A DNA stretch of 64,000 nucleotides, from assembly GCA_007674295.1 (NCBI GenBank), contig CM017447.1:124001-188000 (forward strand). The letters are read 5' to 3'. Position 1 is the first letter of the stretch, and each line of letters starts with the position of its first letter. The position numbers and the translations under genes were made by a program. The notes beneath the pieces were generated by a model. The model was given only the letters and a program-made list of their open reading frames with translations, did not search any database and was not told the DNA's origin. Positions 20,187 through 44,038 of this stretch are shown here, in pieces. This stretch comes from Antonospora locustae. Its lineage: Eukaryota > Microsporidia.

Positions 20187-20789
20187 CTTTGATACTTTAA
20201 TTGAATGAATTTATGAAATTTATGAAACTGTGAAATAAAGTTCCATTTTTAAATGCTTTTTAAATTATATGTTTATATTTATATTGAATAAAAAAACGTG
20301 CATTTCGCTATGTATAATTAGGTAATTACAAATTACAATATTTGTACATGTCTCATATTTTTAAATAATTAGATCCTTTTTGTAAATGATCAAATGAAAC
20401 ACTAAAGGAAAAAATAAATAAAAAAGTTTATAGTTTATGAACATATTTTAGATTTAATTAGATTTATATTCAAATAGAAAATCAATCATATTTTGAAATC
20501 TTGAACCCAAGACATGAAAAACATTAATTTTTTGTTTAAAGTACAAAATATTCATATACATTTTTTTAATATAAGAAGTATTTAAGTTCATTTTTAAAAA
20601 GTTATTCTCTTTACATACAAACATGAAAAGGTCTTTTAGAAACTATTTTCAGAATTAAACTTAATATAAACCTTGTAACATTATGCACAGAATCTTATCG
20701 CGATAACCAGCTAGCTTGCGCTGTTATTTTTATACAACATGCTTTTTGAGTAAAAGTATAAAATATAACAAATTTGTGCATATGCTAAG

Positions 20790-20967
20790 TAATCAGCAAA
20801 TTAAAGTGCAATAGAGACATGATAGGCCTCAACTGTAAGATGTTTTGGGGATTTTCCTAAACAGGAATACAAATAAAATTATACCTGAATTCTACATTAG
20901 GAAAATTCCCAAAACATCTTACAGTTGAGGCCTATCATGTCTCTATTGCACTTTAATTTGCTGATTA
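20790..20967. repeat. 71-nt inverted duplication (R1 copies head to head) with 36-nt spacer
   Basis: 20790-20860 and 20897-20967 are reverse complements with one mismatch. They contain GAGGCCTATCATGTCTCTAT and its complement. Each arm is also a copy of family R1: read from 20900 on the plus strand the frame gives GKFPKHLTVEAYHVSIAL. The transcript could form a very long hairpin. The near identity contrasts with the decay of other R1 copies. Confidence 0.9.
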
Positions 20968-21129
20968 TTGAAAAATACTTCATAAAAATATCTTTAAAAA
21001 ATATATTTAGAGTAAATACATGTTAGTGTAAGTTATTAGTTTAAACTGTTTTATAAGTTTTACAAATTGAGATTAGAATTTTATCACATAATATATAATA
21101 ATTATATTATATTGGTCCACTATAAATGT

Positions 21130-21470
21130 TAGGAATGAAACAGCATAGTTGGAGCGAGGATAACTTCTTTATATGATTACAAGAATTTGATATTGCGAAA
21201 GCTCGCAAGTACGAGCTTCTTGCTGCTGAATTGAAGAGAATCTACAGGTACAGATTATGCGTGATATCTTAAGCGGTTTCGTGTCACAAGAAGTGCCAGA
21301 AGGAGATCTGAGATGTTGGAGGCCCAGATTCAGATGGTGACACTATTGAGAACTTTCTGCATTTGGTTGGGTGCCGAGGCTTATTGAGTGTGGTGCTGGA
21401 AACGGTCTTCAGTGGATTGTTTCACACTCGAATGCAACGAGAACATCATTTCTGATCACTTTTTTACTTT
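21130..21470 (+). pseudogene. Decayed coding relic, possibly C-terminal part of a non-LTR retrotransposon ORF
   Basis: An island of normal composition. A readable stretch KARKYELLAAELKRIYRYRL (about 21190-21255) resembles the region near the C-terminus of reverse transcriptases of LINE-like elements (pattern KY..LA.ELKRIY). Downstream, in another frame, comes RLIECGAGNGLQWIVSHSNA (about 21380-21437), which is motif R2. Stops and frame changes show that it is dead. The family call is an inference and needs a profile search. Confidence 0.45.
21376..21450 (+). repeat. R2 repeat copy
   Basis: TTATTGAGTGTGGTGCTGG followed by GTCTTCAGTGGATTGTTTCA. It matches the complement of 23556-23665 and the other R2 copies. 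It lies downstream of the R1 arm at 20897 in the same orientation. Confidence 0.7.
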
Positions 21471-22959
21471 TTGCTGTAAAATTACTTATACAAAACAAAA
21501 AATTATGAATATTATAGTTTTTAAAAATTAATACCATAAAAACAAAAAGCGTTTTAAAAATTTTGTTTATAACTTGGACAATTTAATTGTTTTATCAAAT
21601 TATTTGATATCATAAAAATGAGAATAATTACTAATAAAAATGATATTTATGATAGTTTCTGATTGAATTTATTTAATTATTCAAAAAATTCTAATAAATT
21701 AAATAATTTATTACACACATCCAATGCTAATTATATTTCTTATATTTTTATTTTTGTAAAAACAGTTTGGCAAAATAAAAATATACATGCAAGACGCGTA
21801 AATATAAAACAATTTATTTTGATATAATAAAATTTTCATCATAATCATGTAATAAACGAAAAATTGAAAAAGAAATAATAAGAACTCACTAATAACCAAA
21901 CATATTCAAAATCTAATGAATTTATTTATAGTATAATAAAAGAAACAAATATGAATTATTTTTAAATAGTTAAAATTAAACAGTTCACCTTTATAAATAT
22001 TTATTTAAACACAAATTAAATCTTTAAGCAAACTTGAATTGTAATTTTTTGCAAGACTGGGCTTATTTATAAATTTATTTCGTTTAATAAAAACTACAAA
22101 TGGATAACATGCTCATGTTACAAATTTATTGAAATAAAATATTTTTAACAGTATAATATAATAAATATTTGTACTATGATGTACTAAAAATTTTCTGTTT
22201 ATACATAAAAACTTTTTAAATAATGTTATTACAAAATTCATAGTTAGAGATCATCATGATCCTAAATATCACTAACAGGTACTGTAACTTAGATTCAGAC
22301 GTTGGTTTCTATTATAAACATAAACTTTATGTTGTTATTTTAGTAAATAAACAACAAATTTTTATACATCTTTATTTTGTTTACTTACGTATGTTAAACA
22401 AAACATTATTTCATAGTTGAATATTTTATTTAATAAAATAATTGTAATATCAATTAATAAATTTACGTAAAATAACAGTATATATGAAACAAATGCATTC
22501 ATTTAAATATGAATATCTTATAAAACATAACTTAAATTTTATAACTATAAATATCTTATATATTTATTATTTTAATAATATTTTAGAAAACATGTTCAAT
22601 TTTTAGTCAACTAATATAGAAAGTTACAATTGTTTAAGATATGCATCAATTTATATTTCTTATATTGAAATGAAATTATTGTTATATATTAGAGCCATAC
22701 GAAATATTAAAATAAAATATTTAACAATAAATTTCGCAATATTAGGTATAAATGACAATTATTATTTTATGAATAAGTATTGTTTTGAATTATTTTACGT
22801 ATATATAAAGCCATTGTCTCCATAAATTGTACAATTTAACATAAATATAACTTAGTTATGTTTATGTTATCAGAAATAATCTAATAACAAGAATAAAAAT
22901 AAAAAAGGTTCTAAATTTTTTATATAACAGCTTTAATAAATTAAACTATTTGGAACTTT

Positions 22960-23210
22960 TATAAAACTCCTTGCTGGTTGTTTTCCAATATGCGCTTGCA
23001 TTTTGTAACAAACGTATATATTTTCTCTTTATCTATAAAATTCTTCTTTACCGAATTTTGGTGTGTATACGTGACTATTGTGACTATAGTCGTCTGCTAC
23101 AGTCTTCTTGCTACGTCCTACCTCTATCAATGGGAAAAAATGTTATAAAAAAGATATTAGTTCAAATATGTGTTACATTAATTGTAGGGAAAACTTATAA
23201 AAAATAACAA
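22960..23210. other. Island of normal composition with a 78-codon frame, unassigned
   Basis: The plus-strand frame at 22971-23207 is hydrophobic at the start and becomes basic. It has no ATG-near CCC signal and no family resemblance. It is probably another relic. Confidence 0.3.
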
Positions 23211-23555
23211 TAACATATAAATTTATTTGTTTTATAAATGAAGAAATCAGATGTAATGTTTTGATTTGAATAACTTTAATAATTTATAATATATGAAAAA
23301 ATAGTAATGTAAATTGTTTTATTGTAAAAAATTTAACTAGTGTTGTAAGTTACTGCAAAAAATATATTTTATATAAAAGCATATCATGTAAACAATATTA
23401 AATATTCTTTAAATAATATAATACTAATAATCTATTTATTTTTAAACGTTACATATACATAATAATATACTACTTATATTTAAATGAAAAATACAAAAAT
23501 TCGCATAAGGATAATTTATTAACTAAAGTAAAAAATATATCGTAAAAGAAGACAG

Positions 23556-23665
23556 TCTATTTAGAAAGGGATTTTCAATAAACACAAATGATCATTGTGA
23601 AACAACCTGCTGGAGACTGTTTTGAGCTCCACACTCAATAAACCTTACTATCTCACCTTTGACGC
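23556..23665 (-). repeat. R2 repeat copy
   Basis: On the minus strand it reads TTTATTGAGTGTGGAGCTC, then CAGCAGGTTGTTTCACAATG, then a tail ending CCCTTTCTAAATA. In frame it gives RFIECGAQNSLQQVVSQ and then a stop. It is the best-preserved copy. Confidence 0.75.
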
Positions 23666-26600
23666 TAAATAAAAAATATAGTGTAAAAGTGTTTAATTAC
23701 AACATTCTAATAGTTATGTCATATATTTGAATATGTAACTATATGATAATTGACTATAATGAGGATTTATTTTCATAAAAATAACTTTATTAGACAGAAT
23801 TTTATAAATATTCATCCGTAAGCTTCTATAAAATAAATATCTGATAAATTTTTTTCTTAAACTAATTGTTGTGTTTAATATTAATTTAATTATAGAAAAA
23901 TAATAAAATAAATATAAATATACATTTAAAAATAATAAGAACTAAAAATTAACTAGTTAATAAGCATTATAACTATCTTTCACGATAATGTTTTTATTTA
24001 TATTATCAACTTTTTAATATTTAAAATATATTAGAAGTATGATTTTGAATAAATATAGATTATGAAGTTTCCAATATTATATTATTTTATCAAATATAGA
24101 TGAAAACAAACCGTTTAGTAAAATTTATTAATAAAATTGTTGTCTTAAAAAGCGAAACACCCATATAGAGGTATGACAGACTTTAACCGACCGAAACGCA
24201 TTAGAAAAGCTTTCTACTAGGTAATTTAATAAGCTGTTACATAAAAGCATATAGAGTAATTAATACAAAATATGTTAAAAACATGCATACAAAATATATG
24301 GATCTACTAAAGTAAGCATACATGTTATAGATAATAAAGAAATGACGCTTGAATTTTAGTTAATTTTATGTATGTAAAAATTATTAGATAAATAATTTAC
24401 ATCTTTCTTTATATCATACTTTTAATGAATTCTAATGTGTCAAATTATTTTACAACATGACATTTATAAATGGAAAAATTTTTCAATAAAAAGTTTATTA
24501 AAAATAACATTTTTATAAACAAAGTAGTTAATTTATATAAAAGCCATATACATATGTAATTTATTTATATAATAAAATTTATAGCGAGATCCATTACCTT
24601 ACATAATAAACAAATAATAAATATAGTCAAATTAGTTTTTAAACCACCTAAAAAACAAAAAAGGCAAAAAAACTTAACCTACAAATTATACTAGATAACA
24701 GAGATAAAACAGGACTAGTAAAGATTTTTTGGTAATGTTCAAAACAGGTAGTGTTAATAGAACCGTTGTTATAAAATTCTATTAATTTAACTGATATAAT
24801 TAGTCTTACTATATGTAATCGTAAATAAATTACAAAAATTAATGATTAGCTAACATATAATTAATATAACAATAAGACGCTTATATAAGAAGTTAAATAA
24901 CTTTTTCAAATGAAACATATCAATTAAAATAAAATAGTATATTTTTAATAGATAACTAATTTGCAAAATTATAAAATTTAATCATTAGTTGTTGTATAAA
25001 ATATTAAAAAACATAATTTGTAAAACATATAATAATTAAACAACAGATAACATTTAAATATAGTATAAACACTTTTTATAAATAAACAATTTCATCTTTA
25101 AAAATAAAAGTTCTGTATTTAATAGTGTATTATAGGATTTAATATTTGTATATTGTAATAAATTTTAAATATTTTTATGGATTTGTATAATACTTGACAA
25201 GTTACAAAAATAGTTATTTATTATTTATCATTATATTAACACATAGCTTATTGATACAAACATTTCAATTAAGTTTATTTTTAAAATGATAAATGTTATT
25301 TGTAACAAAAAAGTAATTTTATATTTTTACTTAAAACTTGTATTATATTGCATAAAAATTAAAAAAAATATTACATGTAACATTTTAATTTAAATTACAT
25401 TATTCAAAGTTTATTACTTTTGCTATATAAAAAATATTTTAAATTACATTTTTGAATTTCTTAATACCTAAAGTTAAAAATACGACAGTAACATATCTAG
25501 TACAAAATTTTAAATCATCAACTTTTGTATTATAAAATATACTTATATTTGTTTTTATAATATTTTAATTTAAAAACAAAATTTTGAAATATTATAGATT
25601 AATATTTGAACAGTTATAACTGTATTTAAAGTTAAACATTTTGTCTTAATTATGAAGAAACAGTTACTTATAATATAATTTACTTCACAAAAATACAACA
25701 ATAACTATAACATTAAACCCATAATAATTGAATGAATGTATAATTAATTTGAATAATAACTTATGTTTAATACAAATCCATTTCCAAGATATTAATATAT
25801 TCTTTATTTAAAGAAAAAGTTGAGTTTGAATAAAGAAGCTCTGTTATGAATTACCTATGCATTGTACATTTAAGTTTATAGTTGTAATAATCAATTGTTT
25901 CAACAGGATTTCATATTAGAAATATTTATATAAATGTTATAGTTTATTACACATTCACTTTAGTTTACATAAAAACTAGTAGTTACACATTTAAAGTAAA
26001 AATCAGATTATTAACAATGAGTACTTTTACAAAAATAAAGATTTATTATATTATGCTTGGTTAACTAATACATTATGACTCCTTTAAGATCAAATTTGCA
26101 CATAAAATTATAATTTTAGTAAAAGGACTTCTTTATTTTTTGTTGATGAAAATATTAAATGGATATGGACTTCTTGTAAAAATATTAAAAAAACAAAATA
26201 ATTAGATGAATTACGATAATAATAATTATATGTTAATAAAATAACAGCATGTTATTTTTATAAATAACATTTCTTTTACAAATAAAGTTATTATTAATCA
26301 ATTTAAATTTCAAAAATAGACATTAATTACATTTTGAATATTAGTTTATATAATTGAATTAGTTGTATTATTTTAATTTATGCTATCAAATTTATTCTTC
26401 ATTAATTTAAAAACTTAATTTTTGACATAATTGTTTAGCTTTTTAGTATATAAAAATATAAATTATATGTGTAAAACATTTTTTGATTTTAAATAAAATT
26501 ATCAACTGTATATTCTTAAAAAATATTATTATCTTAATTTTATAAAATATTCCATTGTGTTACTAATAGTTTTCTAAAAATCACCATATAATTTCATAAA

Positions 26601-27602
26601 TATTTATTTAAAAACTAATTTATTTTTATAGAAAATTTCTCATAAAACATTAAAAACATAATTAAATCTCAATAAGTCAATCAAATAGATAAATTTTTAT
26701 TTTCAGTTATTTTTAATAAATACATTTGTTTGTTCTTATTAAAAAACTAAAATAGTTTTAACATATACTCAAAATGCTGATCACTAATTTTATTAAAAAG
26801 TAGATTAGGAGTTTATACAAATTTATGAAAGATTTATTAAATTTTATTTATTCTTATGAGTATCTGTTGTTTATTTTTAACTTACCGAATAACTTTAATA
26901 CGTTTATATCGATGAAATGTAGATTATAATGTTTAAATTATTTACAATGTTTTATAAAGTATTACTTATATTGAATTAGTTTTTTTATAAATTACATTAA
27001 ACATTATACGTAAGAATAAAATTCAACAAATAATCTAATTATTTATTAAAGCATGTAAATATAGACTATATTGTACTTAAGACATTTATTATATTAGGTA
27101 TTTTAAATAAATCCATTGTTTAAAACTGAAAACATTAAATTGGTTATGTAACTTATAAATTATATAGTAGTATATGAACATGTATACTAATGATTTTTAT
27201 TTGATGTTATTATATAATAAAAATTTTAAAGTTTTTAACAGTTATATTAGCAGTTCATGTAATCATACTTACAACTAATTTTATTGTATTAATAATTCAT
27301 TTAGATTGTTAAATATAAAAACACATCTGCTACAATTTTCTATACTTAAACAAGAATTTAATTTACATATCAAGCATAACATGTTTCCTCTTTAATTTTT
27401 TTTTAATTTTAAATTTTTAGTTAACATTACTTCATACAATTTATGTAATAACTTACATAAGGTTTTAATATTTTTTCCTGAATTATAAACATAAATTTTA
27501 TATAAATATACAAAATATACCTATAATAAGACGAAAACATTATATTTGTCATTTTAAAAAACAACAAAAGTACAGTAGTTCTTTTAAAAAAACATATAAT
27601 AG

Positions 27603-27692
27603 TTTATTTAGAGAGACTATTTTCTATGCACTCAAGTAGTTATTGTGAGAAACATTCTGCAAATGACCGTTTCTAACACTGGACTTAATAAA
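27603..27692 (-). repeat. R2 repeat copy
   Basis: On the minus strand AAACGGTCATTTGCAG, then TGTTTCTCACAATAACTACT, then GAAAATAG and CTCTAAATA. It has the same order of blocks as the other R2 copies. The adjacent 27693-27830 has normal composition but no match I can name. Confidence 0.65.
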
Positions 27693-30033
27693 AATCTCTA
27701 TCTTTATACACAGTACCACCATCAACATCCCACTTTCACCAACATTCTTACTCGACTCGCAACTATACACAGTGCTATTATCCTAATAATAAATAATAAT
27801 ATAATGTTAATTTTAAAATCGTTATCATGTAGTTAACATAAATTTTTTAAATTAATTATTAAAAAATACTTACCACTTAAACATGAAATTTAAATGACTT
27901 AATTTATTACATTTAAAAATTTATTTTGGATAAATGTATTTATTCTAATTCTAGTTTATGAGTAAAATTATACAATTCATTAATAAAATAAAGAAGCGTA
28001 TTATTATATTATATAAAGATTTATATAAGAATTAAAGGTATAAAAATGAAATTAAATATAGAATTTCCATAAATATTTCTACTTTGTTTAATAAAAAAAT
28101 TTATTTATATTAAAAATATATATATAATTTTTAGTTTTGATTCTATTTTAGTTTTATTTTATATTTCATGTTTTTTTTTTCAAATATAATGATTGAAAGT
28201 AAATACCTTAACAACTCTAAGTAATTTAAATAATTAAAAAATTAATTTATAAATACGAACATACCCCATTATATGCTAAAAAATAAAAGCAATCATGCAA
28301 AAAAGTAATATGTTGTTTTAAAACAATATAACTTAAATATTGTGCACCTACTAAAATGGATATAAATACACTTGATCATACATGTTGATGTATATAACTA
28401 TTTTCCTTTATATAATTCATCTTTTACTAACAGTTAGCTCCTTAATGTAATTGTATTATCTACACATGATAACTAAAGAAAAAAATGCATGAGGAATTGT
28501 GATTGCCCAAACACTTTTTAAGAATTTTAATTAAAATATTAACATTAAAGCTATTGTTACAAAAAACTTAAATACATTGCTTTACATTATTATATACATT
28601 AAATATTAAAAATAAAATAAATAAAAAATTTATATAATTATTAATAATTACAAATGCTTATTAATAATACGTGCGAATATGCTTTCTAACATGTTCTTTT
28701 TAGGCATTTTAATAAAGTTATTACAAAAAATATAATTCATACAGATTATGATTTTTATTAAAGATTTAGTAACAGCACTCATAAACATCGAGATAAAATG
28801 TATTCAAAATAAAAAGAAGTACTCATTGACATGTGTTTGCAATTCCTCGATATAATAAATAAAAACTTAGTATACGCTTAAATAAAAAGGCTTGCTGATT
28901 GTGGCCTGTTAGATGTATTGTGCGTAATATAGTTTACATTTTTTTATTCAAATTTTATTCAAAGTAAGTGACGTTAAAATACAAGAATATATATTAAAAT
29001 TAACTTCAAACGGTATACTAATGAATATGAATTTTTATTTTTTTTGTAAAACATATTAAAATTAAGCACATTAATTAAATGATTTTTTATCATAAAAAAT
29101 GTATTTTATTTATACTTTGTAAAGCTTTAGAGAAATAACAAAATTAGTTAAAAATACTTAAAACTATTAATAGTTTAATATTAACGTTAATTATTTATTT
29201 TTATACATAACTAATATTTTATTGACGTTAATATCATATTTTTGTGTTAAACATTTTGCTTTGTTTTTCATACTATTGATCTATTTCGTAATAATTTATT
29301 TTTTCAAAATATTTTAAAAAAAGACACCACCATTTGTAGATCTTTTCTGTAAAATAATGTTATGTCTGCAAGAGGATTTGTTTGACTTTTGTCAAATTAA
29401 CCCAGTTGTATATTGAATGATTAATTGTAATATGTTATAGTGTTTTAATAGTTTTTATTTTAATTCTTGTTAATTAGATACCTTATTTAATTTTTTAATA
29501 ATCATTTAACAGCATATATTGTTTTGCTATTTTAAATATTCTTGCAGTTTAACTTGTGAAGTTTCAGTAAAAAGCTTTTGTAATTATAAAAAATAACGTG
29601 ATGTATAATTACTAATGTACATAAAACTTACATTTTTTATATTTTTTAAATATAAGAATAACAAAGAATTTATAATTTGATTGTTGTTTTATTTGTTTTA
29701 TTTAAATACCTCTTTTTATTACCTGTATTTTTTTCCAATATCCATATATTACTGGTAGAATAATAAAATACACAGTATAAATTTATAGAAGTCTGTTATT
29801 TTAAATATACATTTATTTACGCAAAAATATAAAATAAAATTCACTTATAAATAAAATATATACAATATTCCTCCTTAAAAAATAAAAAAATATTTTACAG
29901 TTTAATGTTTTCTACACATGACATATATTAGATGTTATATATATATTATTTTTGCAAATTAAAATGACCGCAAAAAACAAATCATCTTATAAAATTTGAC
30001 ATTTTTTATCATTGATAAGAAAATAAAAATTAA

Positions 30034-30146
30034 TTTTTTAAGGTAACAACTCTATTAACATATACTATTTGGGAAGAAATCATCCTAAAACGTTCTTGCA
30101 AATTGCAGCTCATCGTGTGCTCGTTGCACTTTTATTCACGCTATAA
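30034..30146 (+). repeat. R1 repeat copy
   Basis: TTTTTTAAGGTAACAACTC, then TTGCAGCTCATCGTGTGCTC, then GTTGCACTTTTATTCACG. The frame IAAHRVLVALLFTL matches other R1 copies. An R2 copy follows in the same orientation about 155 bp downstream. Confidence 0.7.
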
Positions 30147-30300
30147 AAGTTAGTTATGTAGAAAAAATACATAGTGTTTACATATTTTACTATCCGAATT
30201 TTAATTTAGTATACATACAAAATGTTTTACTAAAGTTTCATAACATGTTGCAAGCTAAAAAAAGGCTATTGCATGGTGGAACTCAGAGTACTAATGTAGC

Positions 30301-30391
30301 TATGTCTATTGAGTATAGTGATGGAAACAATTTCCAAAATATTGTTCACAATAACTATTTGAGTTATGGAAAATTCTTTTTCTAAATAAAG
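30301..30391 (+). repeat. R2 repeat copy
   Basis: ATTGAGTATAGTGATGGAAA, then ATTGTTCACAATAACTATTT, then TGGAAAATTC and TTTCTAAATA. It aligns block by block with 23556-23665 (minus). Confidence 0.7.
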
Positions 30392-31311
30392 ACATATTAA
30401 ACGTTTTTACAAAAGTTTTATAATTATACGTAAATATAAAGTATTTTATAGGAAAATTATCATTATTTCTGAAATTGAATTAAACATAAATATGTAGAAT
30501 TGTAGCACTTCAATAGAAGTATGAAATGCATATTATGGGTCCAACATAATAGAAATTCTTTATTTACAAATGTATTTTCTTTAAATAGATAATTTTGCTT
30601 TAAAAGATAGATATCGTATTTCCTTAATGCAAGAATCTTGCTAGTAAAATGGTTATAATAAAAGAATTATACTATCTGATAAAGTTACTTAAAAATATTA
30701 TATACTATAATAAGTAAATTACTTGTACTAGTGCTTTTTAGACGTAAATGTTGAATATATAACTATAACAGGAATCCGTTTTATCAAAATTTACGTTACT
30801 TTATACAAGTTTATATGTTTTTACACTTTTAATATCATAATTATTACTTTATAAATTATATTTAAAAAATTTTTAAAGGTGTTAACTATTAATAAAAAGC
30901 TGTTCTATTTTTAAGATGTGTATTCTTTTTATAAAAAAACACATAAACAAACGTTACTATAAAAAATTTTAGTTTACATGGAAGAATGTAGATTGAACGA
31001 AGTTTTTATAGAATAGTTAACGCAAATATTTCTAATAATAGAATTTTTTAATTGAATATTGAATTGATATAAATACTATATTATAACTATTTTTATTTTA
31101 ATATTTAATATATTCCTTTATATACGATGAATAAACAAAGATTTCTTTTTATATTAAGTGTTTGGTATTTTTGCAAATATTATTCAGTATATAATTTATA
31201 TAATATAAAATATTTTTTTATAAATAAACAACACATTAATTATTATTAAATAAAATATATTAAAAAATTTCAGTTAGTTTTTACTTGAGATTATTTTTAA
31301 CAAAACTTAAT

Positions 31312-31430
31312 AACTTTTAAAATATATTTTCTTAAGTGCTTTAGTAAAACTTTTAAAATATATTTTCTTAAGTGCTTTAGTAAATTTAAAATATATTTTC
31401 TTAAGTGCTTTAGTAAAACTTTTAAAATAT
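31312..31430 (+). repeat. 36-bp tandem repeat, about 3.3 copies
   Basis: Units at 31312-31347 and 31348-31383 are identical. A third at 31384-31416 is 3 nt shorter, and a partial fourth ends at 31430. The shared core is TTTTCTTAAGTGCTTTAGTA. Confidence 0.9.
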
Positions 31431-33335
31431 ACATTACATAGTCTATTTTAAAATTATATTAAAATTCAAGAATTTATGTTTACATAAACTTTTCAGAATA
31501 TTTTGGTAAAAAGCTTTAATATTAATATAACTACAAATTTATTATAGATAGCATTTTCAATAAAATTTAAACGAATTTATAACTAAGAATAATTTACATA
31601 AACACGTAAGATATGAAATATGGATAAAGTTATTAACTTTAAAAAAGACATCAGATATTAATAATAAAAAATTTTATATGATTAATTTATTGTTCGTATA
31701 TATCATAAACTTATTCCGATAAAACCTTTTATTCTAATGTTGTAAATGAAACATAGATAAATAAATATATTAAGGAACCTGATGTTGCTTTAAAAAAATT
31801 ATTTTCACAAGTACAAATTAACACTTGAACTAATGTAGAACGGACACATGCTATTTTGAAACTGATCGAGAAATTATAGAAGCTCTCTAAAATGGAAATG
31901 TGAATAAAAATTTACTAAAAATTATAAATTAACTTATAATTTTAGAAATTTGCTCAAATAAGACTATATTTTTTTAATACTAAAGTTACTATTCTTGTAT
32001 AATGTATTTGTCTTTTTTTTTCAATTTGTATGCAATTTATTTTGTTTAGATCTAAATTTACCATACAGACATAGATAAATAATAATTTTAAACTTTTTTG
32101 CTATAATTAACATTTTTTAAATTAAATGTTTTATTTGTTTTTAAATTTAATATGGTAAAAAAAATTTACTGTTTTAGTATTTAGTTACTGCAAGATAAAG
32201 TACATCTCACACGTTAAGCTTTAACAGGCTTCGATTTTTTGTTTATATTCTCTAATGTTAGGGTTTTGTTAATAAAATATTAAAAAATATTAGTATTTGA
32301 TAAACAAGTCTTTAAGTTTATCATTAAATACTCAATATGTTGTACAAAAAGTTTTTTATTAAAATATAATCCTACAAATTTCCATACAGTTTAATAATTA
32401 ATACTATTACATAAATAATAAACAACTATTGAGATACTATATAATTAATATTATAAATATGAAATTGTTTATATAATTTTATTATAAATAAAATAGTATT
32501 GTTTTTAACTAAAATATTATTAATCCATACATTTTATATGTTATCATAACCAATTGATAAAGTTTCTATTAAATAATTATTTTTAAAATCTTAAAAAATA
32601 TAATTTTAGAATTATTAGAAACGGTTAAAAAACATAGATACTAGTTTATATCAGTTTTGCAAGTCGAATAAAAGTGAAAACGCAAGTATATTGTTGCAGT
32701 AAAGCATTTGCGCAGTAGCGTTATAGAATGTATAGCTGTAAATGATCTTGAACAAACGACTTCTCAATAATCACATGGGATATGAAAGCTATCTGTAAAT
32801 AAAACCTATGCAATTTTATAGATTTATTTTATATATAAATTATTAACAAAGACTTTTTTGTTATTAACTTATTTATGAATATGTTATTAAGTAAATTTTA
32901 AATTTAGAATGTTAATAGAGCCATAAATGTACTTAATATTAATTGTTTTTAGAAATATAATATTTTAGATTATATTGCTTTTAATTTTATTTATTAAAAA
33001 ATGTGATAGATTTAAGATTTAAATAATACGATTTTTATTTTAACTATTAATATGTTAGATATAATTTAATCTTAGCAAACTTAAAGCAATTAAATAATAA
33101 AAACCTAAAACGTATAATCTAATCTTTATAAAAAATTGCTTGATTTTTTAAAGTTAGAAATTATACATTTAATGTAAACATTCTAGTAATAATTTAATGT
33201 TTTTTTTTTTGTTTTCATTATAACATTAATATTGATTTTTAAATATTATTACAAATAATTTTAATTAACATAAAACCTTACAATCTCTCATATCCCATTT
33301 TGTATATAACTTTCTTATTGATGAAAAAGTAACAT

Positions 33336-33420
33336 TTTTTAAGGTAACAGCTTTACTAATGTTTCCAAATTAAGGACCTTTCCTGAAACATTCCAGCCAA
33401 TTGGGACCACCAGTATGGGC
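33336..33420 (+). repeat. R1 repeat copy
   Basis: TTTTTTAAGGTAACAGCTTT, then ACTAATGTTTCCAAATTAAG, then TTTCCTGAAACATTCC. It corresponds to the 5' part of the R1 copy at 37445-37655 (minus). Confidence 0.65.
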
Positions 33421-33540
33421 TTTAATTACAGGGTTTCTATTTGTTATATAATCTATTATTTTTCTTATATTTTTAACAATTTTTCAATAAAATAATTTAA
33501 AATTACTTAGGAGGATATAATTTCTTCAATATAACCAAGA

Positions 33541-33725
33541 AAAATAGTTGCTCTATGGTGTTACTAGTAGGGTATAGGATCCAGCTTATCCAATGTATAC
33601 ATTTGCAACAGTTATCTTCCTGTGTGCACTCATTCCTTGATAGTTAGCAATGTTCTTAGGGATAGCCGCCATGCAAGAACAAGTGCAACGATCACATGGT
33701 GTGCTGTAATAAGTCGAGAACTTTA
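33541..33725 (-). repeat. R1 repeat copy with 3' extension
   Basis: On the minus strand GTTGCACTTGTTCTTGCATG, then GCGGCTATCC, then GAGTGCACACAGGAAG and AAATGTATACATTGG. In frame MAAIPKNIANYQGMSAHRKI, aligned with IAAISQSID and MIAYRKAIAVINV in the copy at 37445. Codon-level similarity between two decayed copies shows a protein-coding ancestor. Confidence 0.7.
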
Positions 33726-35660
33726 GTAAGCTTCATAGTTAAAAACAGTTATTATATAATAGTATAACTTAAATGGTTTTTCTTATTAAAATTAGAGAAA
33801 CAATAATTAAAGTAGTTAATCTGTAAAATATTATTAACATACTTCATAAACTTAATCTAAGATAATTATTGTACTTTATTGTAAAACATATAATGATAAA
33901 ACTTTTGATTCAATTTATACATTAACAACTAAAAGCTAAGTGTGTATGAAATCTTGTGAAATTTATTTGTTATAATTTGAACGTATAAAACATTATAAAT
34001 ATTTTATTTGTTATGGCAACTTATTTATAAAATATATTTTTTAACTAATCTCAAAAAATTTATAGCAATTAGAGTTTTATTTTGTATTAAATAATTATTT
34101 TATTTTTGTTATTTAAAGAATATTATTTCATTAAATATATAATAATATTTAAAAAGCAATAACAAGATGAGTATACTTAAATCATATTGTGATACAATAA
34201 CCATTTGAAGAGTAAATTTATATAATATAAAAATTAAAAAGTAATGCTATTAAGTATATTCAAAATGAGAGCTTTTCCTCTAAACAATTGCCTAAATACA
34301 ATCATGCAGCGATACAGATGTTTTTACATTATAATAAATTCCATTAATTTTATCAAAAAACCTTGTTTTTACGCATATTTTTATTATAAGATTTAAGTTT
34401 GAAAGTTAGAACAAAAACATATTCATACATAGTAAATATAAAAGATAGAAGAATTAAACAAATACAAATTAAACAAACAAGGGAGTTTTAAATAGAAAAA
34501 TTGCATAGATATAATTAGTTATTTTCTGACCATTTAAAATAAATAATAATTGCATTAATTATTATTTTTTATTAAAGAAAAATTAGTAGTATTATAATTT
34601 TACATAGATAAGTAGTTTAATTAATATGCTAAATATAACGTTAAGTTAATGTTTCTTTATATAACAAATTGTAATACATGTTTAAGATAATAAATAACTT
34701 TAACATAACATTAATTAAAATTAAACTAGTTTTATGATTATATAAACATAAATGTTTTACAATTATATATTTTTTATGTACGCCATTTATAAATAAAAAT
34801 ATGTTTAAGTAATTATTTATATTTTTATATATTACAAATCAAAAATAAGATTCAAAGGATTTAAATAAAAATCTTTAACTCTTAGATAACAGAAAAACTA
34901 AATAACTATTTTTAGTAAACATATGTGCAATATAATGATTATTACATATAGAGATACTTATAATTAAGTAAAGTTTATTTTATATTACTAATACATAATT
35001 AGGGCTTAGTACATGAATATAGCTATTAAAATAATTTTTACTGTTATGTGTTATAAAATTATTTAACAATTTAAATAATAATTTAATTTATTGTATCTAT
35101 TTGACTTTAAGTATAATCATTTTTAAAAGTGTGTAGGGAAAATTTTAACATTTCTTAACTAAATAATATTTATACAGATAACAAAAATATTAATAACAAG
35201 TAAATGGTTTGATTTTATCTATAAGAATGAGTTTGCACAGTAGTTTAAAATTCAACTTTAAAACCCTGTTGGAAAAAATATCCCGTCATACCTATTAAAT
35301 CTACATTAAAAATGGATAATAAGTAAAATCTAAAATATTACGTGAAATTATACAATAAAGAATTTTTAATTTTTGTTGATTAAACTATTGAATCTATTAA
35401 AATAACTGCTAATTTGTTCTGCTCAGTGATGATAAAATGTGTTCTAATTTATAATTTTCTTCAGCGTTTAAAAATTAGATGCTAATAATTCAAAAATTTA
35501 ATTTCGTAAAAATATTAATTTTTATCCAATTTATATAGGTACTCAATATGTGTATTATGAATTCATAATACAATTTTTATTTTTTAATTGGACGATGGTC
35601 AAATTGAATCCAAATCAGATTTGAGAAGTAAATTTTACTATGTACGATTTAGCACTAAGA

Positions 35661-35912
35661 CTTTTATTTAGAAAGGGTTTCTTATTACAACCAAGTTTTT
35701 ATGGAAAGCCTGATTGTGACAACAGGTTCCAGCGCCAGATTCAATATTTTACCTTTGTGCTCATCTCCTCTATGCAGTAGCTCACTTGTGCCTATATTAT
35801 TCCTATGTTTGTAATAGTTTTCTTTAATATCACAATCTGAATGCAGACTATCATATTTCTCATAGTTCCTATGATTTTCGCATTTATACAAATAATATCT
35901 TTCTAAACACAT
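35661..35912 (-). pseudogene. R2 copy plus upstream relic frame (75 codons)
   Basis: 35661-35755 (minus) carries R2 blocks: TGGCGCTGGAACCTG, GTTGTCACAATCAGG and CCCTTTCTAAATA. Upstream, a 75-codon frame has NYEKYDSLHSDCDIKENYYK, in the same relative position and with the same KY..L pattern as the relic at 21190. It is probably a relic rather than a live gene. Confidence 0.45.
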
Positions 35913-37444
35913 TACTTTTTTAAGTGGTTACACCATTTAAAACTAATTTTATGAAATAGTTATGTAACTGATAAAAATATTATACAATAATACAATTAAA
36001 TAAATCAACATAACTTAAAAAGTATATTGATTCAAAACATGTTATTTAATTATCACCAACTTGTTTAAATATAAATTACTAACAAGAATTTCAAGAAAAT
36101 TTGTAAAAAAACAAAATATATTATTTAAAAATTTTAATAACAATATTATATAAATTATAATTTTTAATAATATATATAATCAATATCATGTATAAATAAA
36201 CTTTGATTTTTGATTCAATTAATACGATATGAAAAAATTAATTTTTTTAATTTCAAAAAATATTTTTATGTACAACACAACTTTTATTAATAAAGTAAAC
36301 AGAAAAGAATCAATACATATAATTTTTAGTTAATTGATTGTATATTCATTATAATAGATATTTTGGTTTACAATGTGTATGAAGAATATATTATTTTATA
36401 TCATTAATAAAAAAACTTAGAACTCATTGAAAACTTCGTATGATAACATAACACATACACATTTTTTATGAACGTATCTAATACATGACTTTGAAGAAAA
36501 GTATCTTAAAAGTGCCCTAAAGCATAAAATAAATAGTTATATTATTTATATTATATAAAACATAGTAACTTTTGTGATTTATTATTATTTTTAGATTTCA
36601 TTACTAAATTAATGTTTAATTTAGACTTAAACATTAGACCTGTCTAGTAATGGAGAATTCTGTTTATTACAGACAGTTTTAGAATGAAAGTCAGATATAT
36701 TTTAACGTCTATTTTTTAAGTAAAAACTTTATTAATATTCATAATAAGGAAATTTAATAAAGTACCTGTTGCACCCCACTTACAACCTGTCCTTTGCATA
36801 TTGTTTTTCGGGGTTTTTAAGTAACAATTTTACACATTGTAATGTTATTTATAAATAAATTCCTCATATGTTTATGAAATTGTGAAGTATTATTACTATA
36901 TATGTCAATATTTTATACAATGTATTTAATTAATACATGCATATAAGTTATATTATGTATCTAAGTTATTTTTTTATGATTCTATTTTACTTTTAGTAAC
37001 ATAATTTTTGTCAAAATTAATATCAGAAAACTATAATTTTAGAAAAAATCGTATAACATAGTAAATTTATATTTTTACTTAATAATATATTGAATTTTCT
37101 GTGCTTAACTAGTAATTTATATACATTTAATTTGACATTAATATTATTAAAATAAAAACTTATACTTTATAGGATATATAAATTCAAAATTTATTAATAA
37201 GAATACATTTTGTCATAACTTAAATAAATAACAGAAATAATTAATAACTCAATATTATTGTACTAATAATGTAAATAGAGATTTGTATACAAAAACCTAT
37301 TCATAGTATTCATATTCTATAGTGGGAAACCTGCATGATATCACTTATTGTAGCATATCAATAAACTTTCTAACTATATTTTCAGTTATTCATTCCTGAT
37401 AATGAAAAAATAATATTAAAGTATCAGGAAGTAATAGAAAACAT

Positions 37445-37655
37445 CTGATTCGTTCTATACATTGATAACGGCGATCGCCTTCCTGTATGCAATCATTTTC
37501 TGTCAAGCATCGATGCTCTGGGAAATGGCCGCTATGCGATACCATCTGGGAATAAAAGTGCAACCAGTAACATAATGAGCCTCAATCGCACAAGAATTTT
37601 TAGAATTCTTAGCTAATATGGAAATGTTAACAAAGCTGTTACCTTAAAAAATAAG
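37445..37655 (-). repeat. R1 repeat copy, longest
   Basis: On the minus strand TTTTTTAAGGTAACAGCTTT, then GATTGAGGCTCATTATGTTA, then GGTTGCACTTTTATTCC, GCATAGCGGCCATTTCC, ATTGCATACAGGAAGGCGAT and ATCAATGTATAGAACG. 37318-37370 (minus) may be its R2 partner (GTTTATTGATATG and GCAGGTTTCCCAC). Confidence 0.7.
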
Positions 37656-39079
37656 TATTTTTATTTTTAAGTGGTTAATAAATAATAAACCAATTAAGAA
37701 ACTAATTAACTTTTTTAAAACAATATCTCTATATAAAGACCATGTTTATAGAAAATTAATTAAAACATATTGTCTGATTGAATCCAATTTTATTCGTCTT
37801 TCCTGATATTACTTCTACTTAGGTTTTATTTAATTAGGTACTACAAAAATAACAACAGTATTTAATAATTGAACTCCCATGAACCAATTTGCAAAGTATA
37901 TAATATAGATCACAACCAGCCAAAATGTTTTGTTCAAAATTCTCTAAATTGAAATTTTATAAATAAAATGTTAGTTTATAAAAAATAATTAAATTCTTTA
38001 AATAAAAGTTATTTAATACAATATAATTACAAATAATATATATAATTTGAATTATATAAAATTTAATTAAGTTTTAGCTTTATAAATTAATAAAATAGTA
38101 AAAATACCTGGAAGTAATTTAAAAATTGTTATTAGGTTATAGTAAAGTAAAAGGACATAGAAGTCAGCGCATATGTTAATCTAAAAAAGCTTTGTATATA
38201 TTTTTAATGAATAATATATTGACTAAAAAGATTAAGTTATTAAAATGTATAACTAATAAAAAAATTTCCCAATATAAATACTAGAAATATATTTTTTGAG
38301 AAAAGTAGTGTGTTATTTTTCCATGTATTTAACTTTTTAATTAACAAAATTTTAACCTTTAATGTATTACAGTCATAAAAATTCAAAGCAATGATGTGTT
38401 AATACATTGTAATATAGATGTTAATAGTATTACCTATATAAAAAATTAAAAAAAAAAATATTATTGTAGATATATTTAGATAGTTTTGACTTAAATTTCG
38501 TGTAACTATTTTATCAATAAAACCCTCAATTTATGAATTTCAAGTAAAACATCATAATATCGTGTTACAACCCAATATATTATATAGACGTATTTTCATA
38601 ACGTTATTTCTGTATTATATGCTCTCTTTTTTAACAAAAAGTTTATATTTTGAAAATAAATTTATAGCTTAAAAGTAACTTAAAAATTTACAAAGATATT
38701 TGAACTATAAATCTTGTGATAATAAGTAAATATTATTTAAATTATGAACAAAACCTTATAAAATCTATTTAATATTAAATAATCAGTATTAATTAGCATA
38801 TGAGAATGTTAATTTATATGAATGATTTTGTTGCAATTAAAAAATTTTATTATAAAGAATCAGACTATTTAATATGTCATTTTAACTGTTTTTTAATATA
38901 AGTAAATATTACATTCATATTTGCACAAAGAATTAACAATTTATTAATATAAACAAAATTATCAAGGTAACTCTCTATCTATTAAGAAAAATTCCTAGAA
39001 GAATAAAGAAGATCAGGATGTTGTTGTCTATTGTGTACATCTTGGTTCATGACTTTTTAATAAAATTAAAATGACTATT

Positions 39080-39185
39080 TGCGCAAACCAAAGTGCAACT
39101 AGCGTATTGTGAGCCGCAACCGGTCTCTAGGCTTTAGGAAATTCCCCTAATAGGAATTCTAATAAACTTGTTAATAAAAAACTCA
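39080..39185 (-). repeat. R1 repeat copy
   Basis: On the minus strand ACAAGTTTATTAGAATTCC, then GGGGAATTTCCTAAAG, GTTGCGGCTCACAATACGC and TAGTTGCACTTTGGTTTGCG. In frame it gives SLLEFLLGEFPKA, one stop, then RPVAAHNTLVALWFAQIV, the most readable version of the R1 peptide. Confidence 0.7.
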
Positions 39186-39839
39186 TAATCTTAAGTAGAT
39201 GAAGTAAATAATGTGTGGCAATTGTATAAGATTTTTAAGCCTCTATCAGGTTATCAAATACTATTGTTTAAAAATAATAATTCTTATTAAAAACATAGGA
39301 TTATTTTAAGGTAATCCTTTATAAAAATAAAAATAAATGGGAGAACAAAGAATTATATAAAATTATTACCTATCGTGTATTATATGCATTTAATGTTTTG
39401 TTCTATAAATTATTGTGCTATGGCTGTATGTAATATGTTTAAACATCACTTTTGTTTTATATATTTTTAAATAAAATATCTAAATGTTCACTATAACTCA
39501 TATCTTGGAAAATTACACATTTTGCTTCTATGTAGATTGCTATCACAATGTCCTGAATTTATGCATAGTCCGTTTAACTCCATAATCTTAATTAACATGT
39601 ACGGATGACCTAAAACATCCCTTTTAATAATAAATTTATATAATTTTATTTTAAACAGAAACAAAGATCTATTTTATGTATAAAAAAAGCTTTTGTTTTT
39701 AGTTGTACATGAGCAAAGATTTTTCATCACTAATATTTTTAATAGTATTCAACTTTGTTTGACTTTTTATTTAATAAAAAAATTATTTATTACATATGAA
39801 TCGATATTATTTTATGTTTGGTGAACATTTACTACTGCT

Positions 39840-40200
39840 TCCTTTCAACGTTGGCTGGTGTCGTAACTCTCTAAGCATCCCACTTAATTTGAAGATCCTC
39901 ATGTAAAGCTAGGTGATGCCATCGTGCTGTGAAGCAACTTCAAAACGTTGGATTCTAAGTCATAATAATTGCGCATTTTTCGTTCAAATGAATACTCAAC
40001 ACACGGATTCTTAAGCAGTGACTTATGAATCGACCGAGAACCAAAGTGTTAAATGCATATGGTAGTAAGTTTTAACCTGTCGTGAGAGATTTAACCTAAG
40101 GAGTAGTAGAGAATATCTATGGCTTCTATGGTACTTAGTGCAAATAGTTACTGATCAATTTACCACGTGTGTATACACTATTTCTTAGATAAGGCCTTTC
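39840..40200 (-). pseudogene. Relic resembling the 5.8S-LSU rRNA 5' region
   Basis: On the minus strand: CTTTGGTTCTCGGTCGAT, then about 25 nt later CGTGTGTTGAGTATTC, then ATTTGAACGAAAAATGCGCA. These parallel the 5.8S landmarks TTGGTTCTCGxxTCGATGAAG, GTGxxTxxTCxxTxxTTTGAACGCACATTGCGC. Further on, GAGGATCTTCAAATTAAGTG with GGGAT resembles the LSU start GACCTCAAATCAGGTxGGA, and GAAAGGAAGCAGTAGTAAAT resembles GGAGGAAAAGAAACTAAC. In microsporidia 5.8S is fused to LSU, so one continuous copy is expected. The normally invariant GAAGAACGCAG part is lost, so it is a decayed copy. The alignment is by eye and from memory. Confidence 0.4.
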
Positions 40201-41183
40201 AAAAAACATTTTTTTAACAAGCTTTATTAACATTTACATATTGTGAAAAATTTTCATGAATTGAAAAATATTATTTTATTTTTAAATTAAAATTTTATAT
40301 AAAAATTATAAAATTACGAATATTTTCATTTTGTAACATTGTGTTTTGCTAAAACATTGGTAAAAATGCTTTAATCCAAAAAGTTATACTTATTATATGT
40401 AACAGCAAGTAGTTAAAAAGTATACTATCATCATTTTATTCTGCGAAATGACATGTACAACAACACTTTGTGTATCGTAATCCACTAATATATTTTGTTT
40501 TTAATTTTCTAAGATGATAATTTTGTTAATAAAACTATCAACAGAAAAAAAAAGGTACATTATTTTATTATAAAACCATTATACTATTAAAGTTACTATT
40601 AAGTAAATTACTTTTTTTAAAATAATATTTTTATATATAAAGGCAATGGTATTTATATCCAAATAATGGTCATGAACAGCATTCTAGAGATTTTTTTCAG
40701 CATCTGATAAATAAATCATGTCATTAATCTCTTGAATGCAATAGCCTAGAAATAATAGTAAGACATTTCAATCGTACAATATAAAAAAATAAACAAAAGT
40801 TTCCCTTTATTAAAATATTTTTCGTAACTATGTATTATTAGAAATTTAGGTATTAACCAATTTTTGGAAAACATGACAAAAAAAAGGTAGTACGTTAAAA
40901 ATAACACATAATGGATTTTATTATTCTATTTGTATTGTTACTTTAATTTTTTAAATCATAAAAATTGTGAGGTTTATTTATTATATATAATACTTTTATA
41001 TATGGTATTTTTATATTAAGTTAATACAATAACAAATGTGGCTTTGAATTATTAGTTATTATTTACATAGTGTTTACTTATATTTTAAAATATTAATCAA
41101 TAAGTTTTTTATATCGCATTTTTATTGGATGGTGTTTTTATCTGTTTTAATTAAAAGTTGAACTCAAAAAGATTTAATATTTT

Positions 41184-41300
41184 TTTAAGATAACTACTTT
41201 GTTTTATTTCTATTTATCAAGGATTTACAAAACGTAGCAGCTGGTCGTGCTCCGTCTTGTGCCTGTTGCACTTTGGTTCACAGTTTTTAAGGTAAAATAG
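41184..41300 (+). repeat. R1 repeat copy, diverged
   Basis: TTTTTTAAGATAACTACTTT, then GTAGCAGCTGGTCGTGC, then CCTGTTGCACTTTGGTTCAC. The order is that of R1, with a shorter left half. Confidence 0.55.
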
Positions 41301-42504
41301 CTTTATTTATATTTATATTTTGAAAAGATAAAAAGATTTAAAAAGTTAAAAAGCCATTTCACTGTGTTTTTGTTTATCTTACTTTATTAACTGAACAAGT
41401 TAAAGATATAATATGCAAGGTATATTAAAAAGCATTTTTTTAATAATTCCCCAAGAACTTTAGCTTTAAATTTTTATATTTCAATAAAAATTATTGGGCA
41501 AAGCTATTCTATAGCAATGCTAATTTGTCAGGAAGAGAGCATTATGAAGTTATGACCTATTTCATCTGTTGATTATAGTTAACTCTTTATGCGACATTAT
41601 TCCTAGATAAGTAACAATGATTAAGAATTTATGTATGAAAATTTTTTATAAAAACTAATGTGCAAATTATTCCGCTAGTTAACCATCTGGGACTTTTTTC
41701 AAACATATTTAATGTTAGAATTTTAATAAAACTGCTACAAAAATATATAATGTGAATTTCTTTTAAAAATAGGATCCAAATAGAATATAAAAATAAATGT
41801 TAATATGCATTTACAGATATAACAGTTTTTAATATAAGAAATGATCGATTTTAAACTTCATTTTTAAAAAAATTTATAAAAAGTTGGGTAAAATTAAAAT
41901 AAATTGTAAAATTACGTCTCCATAAGTTTTTTTATTGATTTATTATTTTTATATTTCAACCAGTTTATATAAATTTTGGATTATTTTTATAAAGAAGTAC
42001 TAACTAATAAATGTATGTATATTCTTACTAAATATGAATGAAAAATAAGAGCTTTATTTATATGAAAACAACATAAATCGAAACAGTTTTTTACAGTGTG
42101 TAGGACTTTTAATTATGCTCGATATAATAGATATTTGTGTTACACAATAGTGTGTTAAGTTAATAATATACTATCATTAAATCTACTTATGAAACTTATT
42201 AAATATGTGTTAATTTATTAAATAAAGACTTATCGTGTTATCTTTTAATTTCGTTGAAATAACTAGAAAATATTGTATTTATATACATTTGTTTTTCTAT
42301 TACATTCAATTCGGAACTATGATGTGGAGTACTAAAAAGTTAAAAAAACTTCATGTGTATATAATTTTTTCTACGATAATTAAATTTAAATTAAGATTTT
42401 TATATAGTGTATCAGTTGTGTTTTTTACTAAGTAATTTTTTATTTTGGTCATCTCATTAAATTATAAAATGCTTTAAGATAACCCTTGTGTATCATATTA
42501 GTAT

Positions 42505-42567
42505 CCTGCCTGCAAGATGTTTCACAATAATCATTTAAGTGTATAGAAGAAGTTCCCTCTAAATAAA
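42505..42567 (+). repeat. R2 repeat copy (3' half)
   Basis: CCTGCCTGCAAGATGTTTCA, then CAATAATCATTTAAGTG, then TTCCCTCTAAATAAAT. It matches the second half of 23556-23665 (minus). Confidence 0.65.
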
Positions 42568-43385
42568 TCTAAATTTACTTATATTAATTTTAAAGTAAAA
42601 CATTGTTTTTAATAGCTAACTTTTATATTTTTGCTAATATAAATCAAAACTAGAAAAAGAAACTTTTTGTAAACAGAATTAATAATAAAATATCAACAAG
42701 ATAATTTTTATAATAAAGCTCCTACTTATGCAAAGTACACGTTGTACAAAAACCGGGGTTTTAGAAATGCCAATTTTTATCATATAAATGATGAAGGTTA
42801 AATAGTCATATAATTAAAAAATTTTTATATATGAATTGTTTTTTATAGGATATATATAATTTAAATTTAAAAAACTTATGCTATTGTATTTATATAAATA
42901 AAAAGTTTTTGGTATTTATTTAATCTAGTTTTAAAATATATAGTTGATTATTACTAATTATTATATTAAAGTATTTTTAAACTAGATTAAAATATTGTTA
43001 AGTTTATAATAATGTTTCTACCTAACATTCGATACAAATAAAATTATTTACTCATTTTATTTATTCAAGTTATATTGACACTATAAAAGAAAAAAAAACA
43101 TAATCGCTTATATTTTTCTTGCTTAAACTTTTTAATTAACAGTTCTATCAAACTCCATTTAATTTGTAAAAACAAAATTGTCAAAAGTACTTTTTATTTA
43201 CTAATTGAATATTACGTTATAAAAAACAATAAACTTCGATATATCTTTAAATACAAGGTGACCTTTGAATCTTAATTTTAATTTTCCGTATTCGAAAATA
43301 ACAGGGAGAAAAGAATTTTATTACAACATGGATTAAAGGGGATTGTAATTAAGCATCAGTATCAATACTATAATTAGTGCTTTAA

Positions 43386-43823: not shown

Positions 43824-44038
43824 GGGAGACAGGATATCTTGTTTAAATATAGCTAGGCGGGAAAAATGGCGGCAATAATACATATCAATACGTATACATA
43901 AATAGAATATTTATAAGATAATTAGGAAACATTAAAATAGCAGCTTCTCTACAGTTAGTTTTGATAAAAATATCCCATGCCCGCCAAAATAAGGCGGGAA
44001 AAGTAAACATAAATACATCGAAAACATGCCCTCATCAT
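43824..44038. promoter_or_regulatory. Shared H3/H4 promoter with E2F-like elements
   Basis: The 215-bp spacer between divergent H3 and H4 holds GGCGGGAAAAATGGCGG at 43856-43872. It also holds an inverted pair CCCGCCAAAATAAGGCGGG at 43980-43998 followed by AAAA. TTTGGCGGGAAA is the known E2F/DP consensus. In this A+T-rich neighbourhood such G+C-rich boxes stand out. I infer S-phase co-regulation of the two histones. Confidence 0.55.

What the first reader, a model, noticed from the sequence alone, without database searches (positions are those of the whole stretch)
20187..43385. A 23-kb A+T-rich gene desert inside a gene-dense genome: candidate regional centromere or heterochromatin block
Seen: gene spacing of tens of bp on both sides, then about 23 kb with no credible gene. 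The coding shoulders (16.8-20.2 and 43.4-45.9 kb) have shifted codon use, so composition changes gradually on both sides. Known: fungal regional centromeres are often A+T-rich, gene-free and full of dead mobile elements. Inference: this could be a microsporidian centromere, and the nearby H3, EED, Nuf2 and Ask1-like genes may be coincidence.
Basis: partly seen in the sequence, partly recalled or inferred. Interest (0 to 1): 0.88.

Follow-up and report, generated by a model that had tools for sequence, protein, structure and literature searches.

The report
Likely AT-rich centromere of a microsporidian
This gene-free, AT-rich stretch of a tiny insect-parasite genome recurs about once on almost every chromosome, which fits the long-sought centromeres of microsporidia, though no chromosome-binding experiment has yet shown it.

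Summary
The desert is real. Window 20187-43385 is 23,199 bp at 20.3% GC between flanks near 48%; its longest ATG frame (75 codons) is no longer than in shuffled sequence, and no RNA gene was found. The genome (3,170,203 bp, 17 contigs) is very probably Antonospora locustae. Sampling all 17 contigs found one such block on 16; 19 of 20 two-kb stretches taken in or beside the 15 other blocks averaged 19.9% GC with no open frame above 91 codons. C9 is the exception. Third-position GC of genes at the edges falls to 0.21-0.26 and recovers within about 3.5-4.5 kb on both sides, like the GC troughs of fungal centromeres. The genome encodes a CenH3 candidate, a CENP-C cupin, Nuf2 and HP1. Best reading: a long, epigenetic AT-rich regional centromere, kept AT-rich by local loss of GC-favouring recombination. 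No CENP-A binding data exist here. The low-GC regions are, as I recall, published (2020), and a 2026 paper likens A. locustae regions to fungal centromeres; the gradient, shared repeat and protein kit add support that I did not find in print.

The parts
20187..43385 (.). AT-rich gene-free block, candidate regional centromere (C1:144187-167385)
   Evidence: GC 0.203; longest ATG frame 75 codons
16825..20186 (.). Left shoulder: forkhead (16825-17907 -), GNAT (18153-18629 -), unknown (18712-19542 -), RING (19602-20186 +); GC3 0.32, 0.26, 0.21, 0.24
43386..45744 (.). Right shoulder: histone H3 (43386-43823 -), histone H4 (frame 43961-44341 +, ATG at 44039), unknown (44884-45546 -), tRNA-Cys (45673-45744 -); GC3 0.26, 0.31, 0.38
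21131..21456 (+). R1: retroposon-like repeat shared with blocks on other chromosomes (99% copies on C8, C13, C5; 73% on C7; short match on C15); common 3' end, different 5' ends
43003..43161 (+). 159-bp piece 99% identical to C5:87029-87187, next to a low-GC sample on C5
20790..20967 (.). Near-perfect inverted repeat, arms about 80 b; no second copy found
30259..30494 (.). Member of an old dispersed repeat (others near 23458-23650, 27566-27730, 42509-42642) with matches on C4 and C5; a link to R1 is possible but not above the shuffle null
46966..48285 (+). Nuf2 (outer kinetochore) gene near the block; position may be coincidence
   Evidence: PF03800 4.4e-24

Best explanation
The block is the centromere of this chromosome: a long (about 23 kb) AT-rich, gene-free regional centromere with no satellite array, specified epigenetically. 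Inferred mechanism: a CenH3 nucleosome domain and CENP-C sit in the block and recruit the Ndc80/Nuf2 kinetochore; HP1-type heterochromatin may flank it; kinetochore chromatin suppresses recombination over the block plus a few kb on each side; without GC-favouring repair, synonymous and non-coding sites drift to the mutational equilibrium of about 20% GC; genes cannot persist in the core and insertions are tolerated there. Shown: composition, lack of genes, recurrence on 16 of 17 contigs at sampled resolution, the GC3 gradient, the presence of the protein genes. Inferred: CENP-A occupancy, recombination suppression, heterochromatin.
For: (1) One block on 16 of 17 contigs by sampling; chance that 16 randomly placed blocks all fall on different contigs about 3e-6. 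(2) GC3 falls from 0.51-0.67 to 0.21-0.26 at both edges within about 3.5-4.5 kb; spacers fall from 0.44 to 0.32, the block is 0.20, so this is a regional process, not just loss of genes. (3) CenH3 candidate on C14 with a divergent tail and a loop 1 longer by 5 residues than two canonical-tailed H3s, 10 aligned relatives being longer by 3 or 5; CENP-C cupin just over its Pfam cut-off; Nuf2; HP1 with chromo and chromoshadow domains. (4) A repeat at 99% identity shared by blocks of several chromosomes, and a second 99% piece. (5) Anatomy like that of experimentally mapped centromeres of Magnaporthe oryzae and Malassezia (passages including abstracts of PMC6667624 and PMC7025860).
Against: No CENP-A, Hi-C, methylation or expression data. 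C9 has no comparable block at sampled resolution (gaps up to 9 kb), so the rule has an exception. A second block shorter than about 20 kb could hide between samples (largest gaps 11.7-21.7 kb off C9). On C5 a 0.37-GC sample lies between two low samples, and on C4 the samples at 148 and 156 kb read 0.30, so size and unity of those blocks are not fixed. The GC3 gradient was measured in the window only. Repeats of the old dispersed group are not confined to blocks: 2 of the 7 hits are one place at C5:2.3 kb, near a sample of 0.47 GC. CENP-C rests on 1-5 bits above cut-off; at the lax E of 10 used, 8 of 14 prokaryote controls rang, 0 over the cut-off. No Scm3 match, but that search had no working control.
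Confidence: 0.74

Rival explanations
1. A heterochromatic, late-replicating or recombination-cold block that is not the kinetochore site; the real centromeres are elsewhere (subtelomeric, as proposed for Encephalitozoon) or the chromosomes are holocentric.
For: No kinetochore data; Encephalitozoon centromeres are suspected to be subtelomeric (passages of PMC10158259); a survey found no centromeric regions by GC or repeats across its microsporidia and mentions holocentricity (passages of PMC12449221); C9 lacks a block.
Against: One internal block per chromosome on 16 of 17; CenH3 and CENP-C candidates argue for CENP-A-based, probably monocentric chromosomes.
Confidence: 0.17
2. A dead-gene or transposon graveyard without chromosomal function, AT-rich only because non-coding DNA decays to the mutational equilibrium.
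For: Young R1 copies and old repeats; frame lengths like shuffled sequence.
Against: Spacers away from the block keep 0.44 GC, and synonymous sites of genes including H3 and H4 drop to about 0.25-0.3 at its edges; random graveyards need not be one per chromosome (P about 3e-6).
Confidence: 0.06
3. Assembly artefact: foreign or AT-rich sequence joined between two gene-dense pieces.
For: Reads were not available here.
Against: Similar blocks on 15 other contigs, smooth symmetric composition gradient, repeats shared between blocks.
Confidence: 0.02

Closest known systems
Magnaporthe oryzae centromeres (CenpA ChIP-seq; PMC6667624, passages including the abstract)
   Same: One long AT-rich, transcription-poor region per chromosome; no common motif; a few repeats; AT richness was used to predict centromeres in other isolates
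   Different: 57-109 kb and at least 67% AT there; about 23 kb and 80% AT here; CENP-A binding shown there, not here
Malassezia centromeres at GC troughs (PMC7025860, passages including the abstract)
   Same: One GC minimum per chromosome, no repeat arrays
   Different: Core of about 1 kb inside a 3-5 kb kinetochore-bound region, enriched in a 12-bp motif; the block here is far longer and no motif search was run
GC-poor troughs at yeast centromeres (Lynch et al. 2010; seen only as cited in passages of PMC3845650)
   Same: Composition trough attributed there to suppressed meiotic recombination and reduced biased gene conversion
   Different: Here the trough also holds 23 kb without genes
Candidate regional centromeres of Microsporidia sp. 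MB (PMC13174016, Discussion part 1 of 2 and passages)
   Same: Gene-sparse regions on all 13 chromosomes of a microsporidian, proposed without CENP-A data; the authors mention 'similar regions in A. locustae' with locally reduced GC
   Different: MB regions are GC-rich, retroelement-dense, CpG-methylated and near rRNA genes; here AT-rich, no retroelement RT found beside telomerase, and the two SSU rRNA genes found lie about 100 kb from the C6 block
'Ultra-low GC regions' of A. locustae, about 25 kb on 16 of 17 chromosomes (Chen et al. 2020, abstract recalled; paper not held)
   Same: Almost certainly the same feature; my sampling independently gives 16 of 17
   Different: As I recall, they were linked to regulation of host defence rather than to centromeres

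Membership tests
AT-rich regional centromere (fungal type) | CENP-A/CenH3 chromatin over the locus | not testable with these tools
   No ChIP data
AT-rich regional centromere (fungal type) | One locus per chromosome | tested here: inconclusive
   One block on each of 16 of 17 contigs with unsampled gaps up to 21.7 kb; none found on C9
AT-rich regional centromere (fungal type) | Gene-free, kilobases long | tested here: met
   23.2 kb in the window; elsewhere only 2-kb stretches read: 19 of 20 have GC 0.17-0.24 and frames of 91 codons or less, the 20th (C6:78 kb, 0.35) looks like a shoulder
AT-rich regional centromere (fungal type) | Composition trough reaching into flanking genes | tested here: met
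   GC3 gradient on both sides, window only
AT-rich regional centromere (fungal type) | Genome encodes CenH3 and inner/outer kinetochore proteins | tested here: met
   CenH3 candidate, CENP-C cupin, Nuf2; Scm3 not found, without a control
AT-rich regional centromere (fungal type) | Poor transcription; heterochromatin or DNA methylation marks | not testable with these tools
   No expression or methylation data
AT-rich regional centromere (fungal type) | Conserved position in relatives | not tested
   No assembled relative was compared
Point centromere (budding-yeast type) | Short conserved motif set shared by all centromeres | not tested
   No motif search was run; only looked for local similarities above shuffled scores between block samples
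Satellite centromere | Long tandem arrays | tested here: not met
   Only short arrays in the window block, best 36 bp x 3.4

The most novel reading that the evidence does not exclude
Sixteen chromosomes carry old, fully decayed AT-rich regional centromeres, while C9, a low-GC, still gene-bearing chromosome, has a young or repositioned centromere that has not yet become a desert: a within-genome series showing how a regional centromere ages, in a microsporidian where base composition alone points to the centromere of nearly every chromosome.
Probability: 0.25. Interest if true: 0.75.

Novelty: new member of a known kind. Interest (0 to 1): 0.58.

Why it matters
Where microsporidian centromeres lie is open: recent surveys of complete or near-complete genomes could not place them (PMC10158259, PMC12449221; passages). 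If these blocks are centromeres, one species offers 16 assembled loci plus a CenH3 candidate gene, so a single CUT&Tag or Hi-C experiment can settle it. It would also show that even a 3.2-Mb gene-packed genome spends roughly a tenth of its length on long epigenetic centromeres (about 16 x 23 kb, extrapolated from the window), and it would tie base composition to chromosome segregation rather than to host interaction.

Tried and rejected
Rejected: satellite centromere; hidden RNA genes; intact retroelements: the only RVT_1 hit (1 candidate, 1 scored), on C2, is a telomerase with a Telomerase_RBD domain, and no rve integrase was found. Ten translated frames of desert GC islands gave no credible Pfam domain (best E 0.0072, below cut-off), and the one gene-like frame in R1 matched nothing. 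blastn with lax scores between blocks gave hundreds of mostly 56-60% matches that I judge to be composition artefacts; redid it with strict scores and five shuffles (best shuffled score 56): 21 pairs scored above 56, of which 11 involve loci chosen because they hold R1, 3 are within the window block and 7 join different contigs. The R1 to old-repeat link (82% over 50 bp) scored 55 there, so it is not above the null. The DNA search tool skips common words: one search did not return the query's own place, so absence of further copies is weak evidence. One search used three loci in the wrong orientation; one search replaced it. An alignment step named a file that did not exist and gave nothing. 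RIP-like mutation: dinucleotide ratios are near those of random AT-rich DNA and CpG is only mildly low (0.80 against 0.91 in the flanks), so not diagnostic. The HMG-box genes were tested as a reason for C9's low GC and lie on C17. Block next to rDNA: not so for the two SSU genes found (5 of 43 candidates scored). tRNA genes as block boundaries were looked at only by eye.
Full report
What is there. The window lies at C1:124001-188000 of a 3,170,203-bp, 17-contig genome. I take it to be Antonospora locustae: the total and contig count equal those I recall for strain CLX (Chen et al. 2020, not held); the mean GC of my 160 samples, 41.8% (five of the 160 were placed on earlier hits), is close to the 41.6% quoted for A. 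locustae in PMC13174016; and the nearest named enolase relatives are microsporidia (Astathelohania, Gurleya). Against: the same paper gives 18 scaffolds for A. locustae, one more than here. No tool named the genome.

The desert is confirmed: 23,199 bp, GC 0.203, fairly flat along its length (eighths 0.18-0.23), longest ATG frame 75 codons against 48-113 in 50 shuffles; no RNA gene; no long satellite. Flanks are gene-dense at GC 0.43-0.54.

One per chromosome. 160 samples of 300 b plus 39 gene-centred loci, 20 one-kb samples on C9 and 20 two-kb stretches were compared. 24 of 160 samples had GC below 0.27: 22 fall in one region on each of C2-C8 and C10-C17, and 2 are on C9; 0 of the 13 samples on C1 outside the window are low. 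Of the 20 two-kb stretches taken in or beside the 15 other blocks, 19 have GC 0.168-0.241 (mean 0.199) and frames of 91 codons or less; the 20th (C6:78 kb, 0.35, frame 118) looks like a shoulder. Block lengths are only bounded: 24.0-30.7 kb on C5 if it is one block; elsewhere minimum 2-20 kb and maximum 27-60 kb. On C5 a 0.37 sample sits between low ones; on C4 the samples at 148 and 156 kb read 0.30. The largest unsampled gaps are 11.7-21.7 kb outside C9, so a smaller second block cannot be excluded. If 16 blocks fell at random in proportion to contig length, all on different contigs would happen with P about 3e-6.

The exception. C9 is low in GC over most of its length (0.23-0.39 in samples, but 0.49-0.53 at 43-58 kb and 0.44-0.48 at its ends), and 18 of 20 one-kb pieces hold an open frame of 100 codons or more. 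No 20%-GC block larger than its 9-kb sampling gaps was seen; the most gene-poor piece is 93-94 kb (GC 0.27, longest frame 74). This agrees with the '16 of 17' I recall from the 2020 abstract.

Why it is AT-rich. GC3 of 28 window ORFs taken as genes: moving out from the left edge 0.24, 0.21, 0.26, 0.32, 0.47, 0.51, 0.56, 0.67; from the right edge 0.26, 0.31, 0.38, 0.44, 0.66. The edge genes include histones H3 and H4 with intact frames. Spacers beyond 3.6 kb are 0.44 GC, nearer ones 0.32, the block 0.20. A regional process therefore reaches 3-4 kb into functional genes. Suppressed recombination with loss of GC-biased conversion is the usual reading of such troughs at yeast centromeres (Lynch et al. 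2010 as cited in PMC3845650; passages); local mutation bias is not excluded.

Shared elements. The R1 repeat (21131-21456, perhaps longer) has copies at 99% identity on C8, C13 and C5, at 73% on C7, and short matches on C15 and C9. Five of these six lie in or at the edge of low-GC DNA like the blocks; the sixth is on C9. The three 99% copies end at the same 3' point within a base and begin at different 5' points, the pattern of 5'-truncated retroposons. One frame reads like the end of a non-LTR retrotransposon protein; that is recall, and Pfam gave nothing. No retroelement RT was found, so the source is unknown. A 159-bp piece at 43003-43161 is 99% identical to one at C5:87.0 kb, beside a low sample. 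An old dispersed repeat (for instance 30259-30390 and 23560-23648) has matches in the C4 and C5 blocks but also at C5:2.3 kb, outside any block seen (7 hits, 5 in or by blocks, 2 at that one outside place). Strict comparison of block samples gives 7 pairs between different contigs above five shuffles, apart from loci chosen for R1. Insertion tolerance explains this as well as targeting does.

The protein kit. Besides two canonical-tailed H3s (window and C1:323 kb) there is a third H3 on C14 (155 aa) with tail MARTAF and a loop 1 longer by 5 residues; the ten relatives I aligned (of 16 found) begin MARTAF or MARTAH and have a loop longer by 3 or 5. PDB sequence search ranks ordinary H3 first, so it does not by itself name it CenH3. 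A 395-aa protein on C4 matches the CENP-C cupin just over the cut-off (33.5 bits in the genome scan, 30.2 for the protein, cut-off 29; 0 of 14 prokaryote controls reach the cut-off). Nuf2 is in the window. An HP1-like protein with chromo and chromoshadow domains is on C4. Scm3 was not found, without a working control.

In print. Searches of an open-licence library: 'Antonospora locustae, complete genome' (43 papers, 20 listed), 'microsporidia, centromere' (74 papers, 30 listed), 'ultra-low GC, locustae', 'locustae, GC region, 17 chromosomes', 'microsporidia, centromere, Hi-C' and 'microsporidia, CENP-A' (16 papers, 10 listed). PMC12449221 reports no centromeric regions by GC or repeats in its species and does not mention A. 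locustae (passages); PMC10158259 could not place Encephalitozoon centromeres (passages); PMC10759460 on Vairimorpha necatrix does not use the word; PMC13174016 proposes regional centromeres in Microsporidia sp. MB and mentions 'similar regions in A. locustae' with reduced GC. So the feature is known and the centromere comparison has been hinted at; I did not find the case argued for A. locustae in those searches.

Verdict. A long AT-rich regional centromere of the Magnaporthe/Malassezia kind is the best explanation (0.74). C9 is the one sequence test that it does not pass; membership awaits CENP-A mapping.

Noticed in passing
G000 contig C9 (171,047 bp): Chromosome-wide low GC (about 0.35) with many open frames, a normal-GC island at 43-58 kb, and 9 of the 45 tRNA hits (63 of 124 candidates scored) on about 5% of the genome.
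   Followed up: partly
window 20790-20967: Near-perfect inverted repeat with arms of about 80 b (fold -81.6 kcal/mol against a shuffle mean of -15.6, z -21), bounded by TA, no second copy found; perhaps a mariner-type miniature element (recalled type).
   Followed up: partly
L035 (C17:46.5 kb), L014 (C9:38.5 kb), L033 (C9:61.6 kb), window 45673-45744: Several GC steps lie at or near tRNA genes, for example 0.30 to 0.55 at C17:46.5 kb; tRNA boundary function is known elsewhere (recalled), not tested here.
   Followed up: no
G000 C2:200289-201038 (L249): Sole reverse transcriptase hit is a telomerase (RVT_1 plus Telomerase_RBD), although no telomere motif is reported for A. locustae according to PMC13174016.
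   Followed up: partly
G000 C6:189014-195088: The two SSU rRNA genes found lie on opposite strands about 3 kb apart, about 11 kb from a contig end (5 of 43 candidates scored).
   Followed up: no
window 31312-31431: 36-bp unit repeated 3.4 times, the longest tandem array in the block.
   Followed up: no
G000 C17:64907-65365: Two HMG-box hits side by side, candidate part of the sex-related locus (locus recalled).
   Followed up: no
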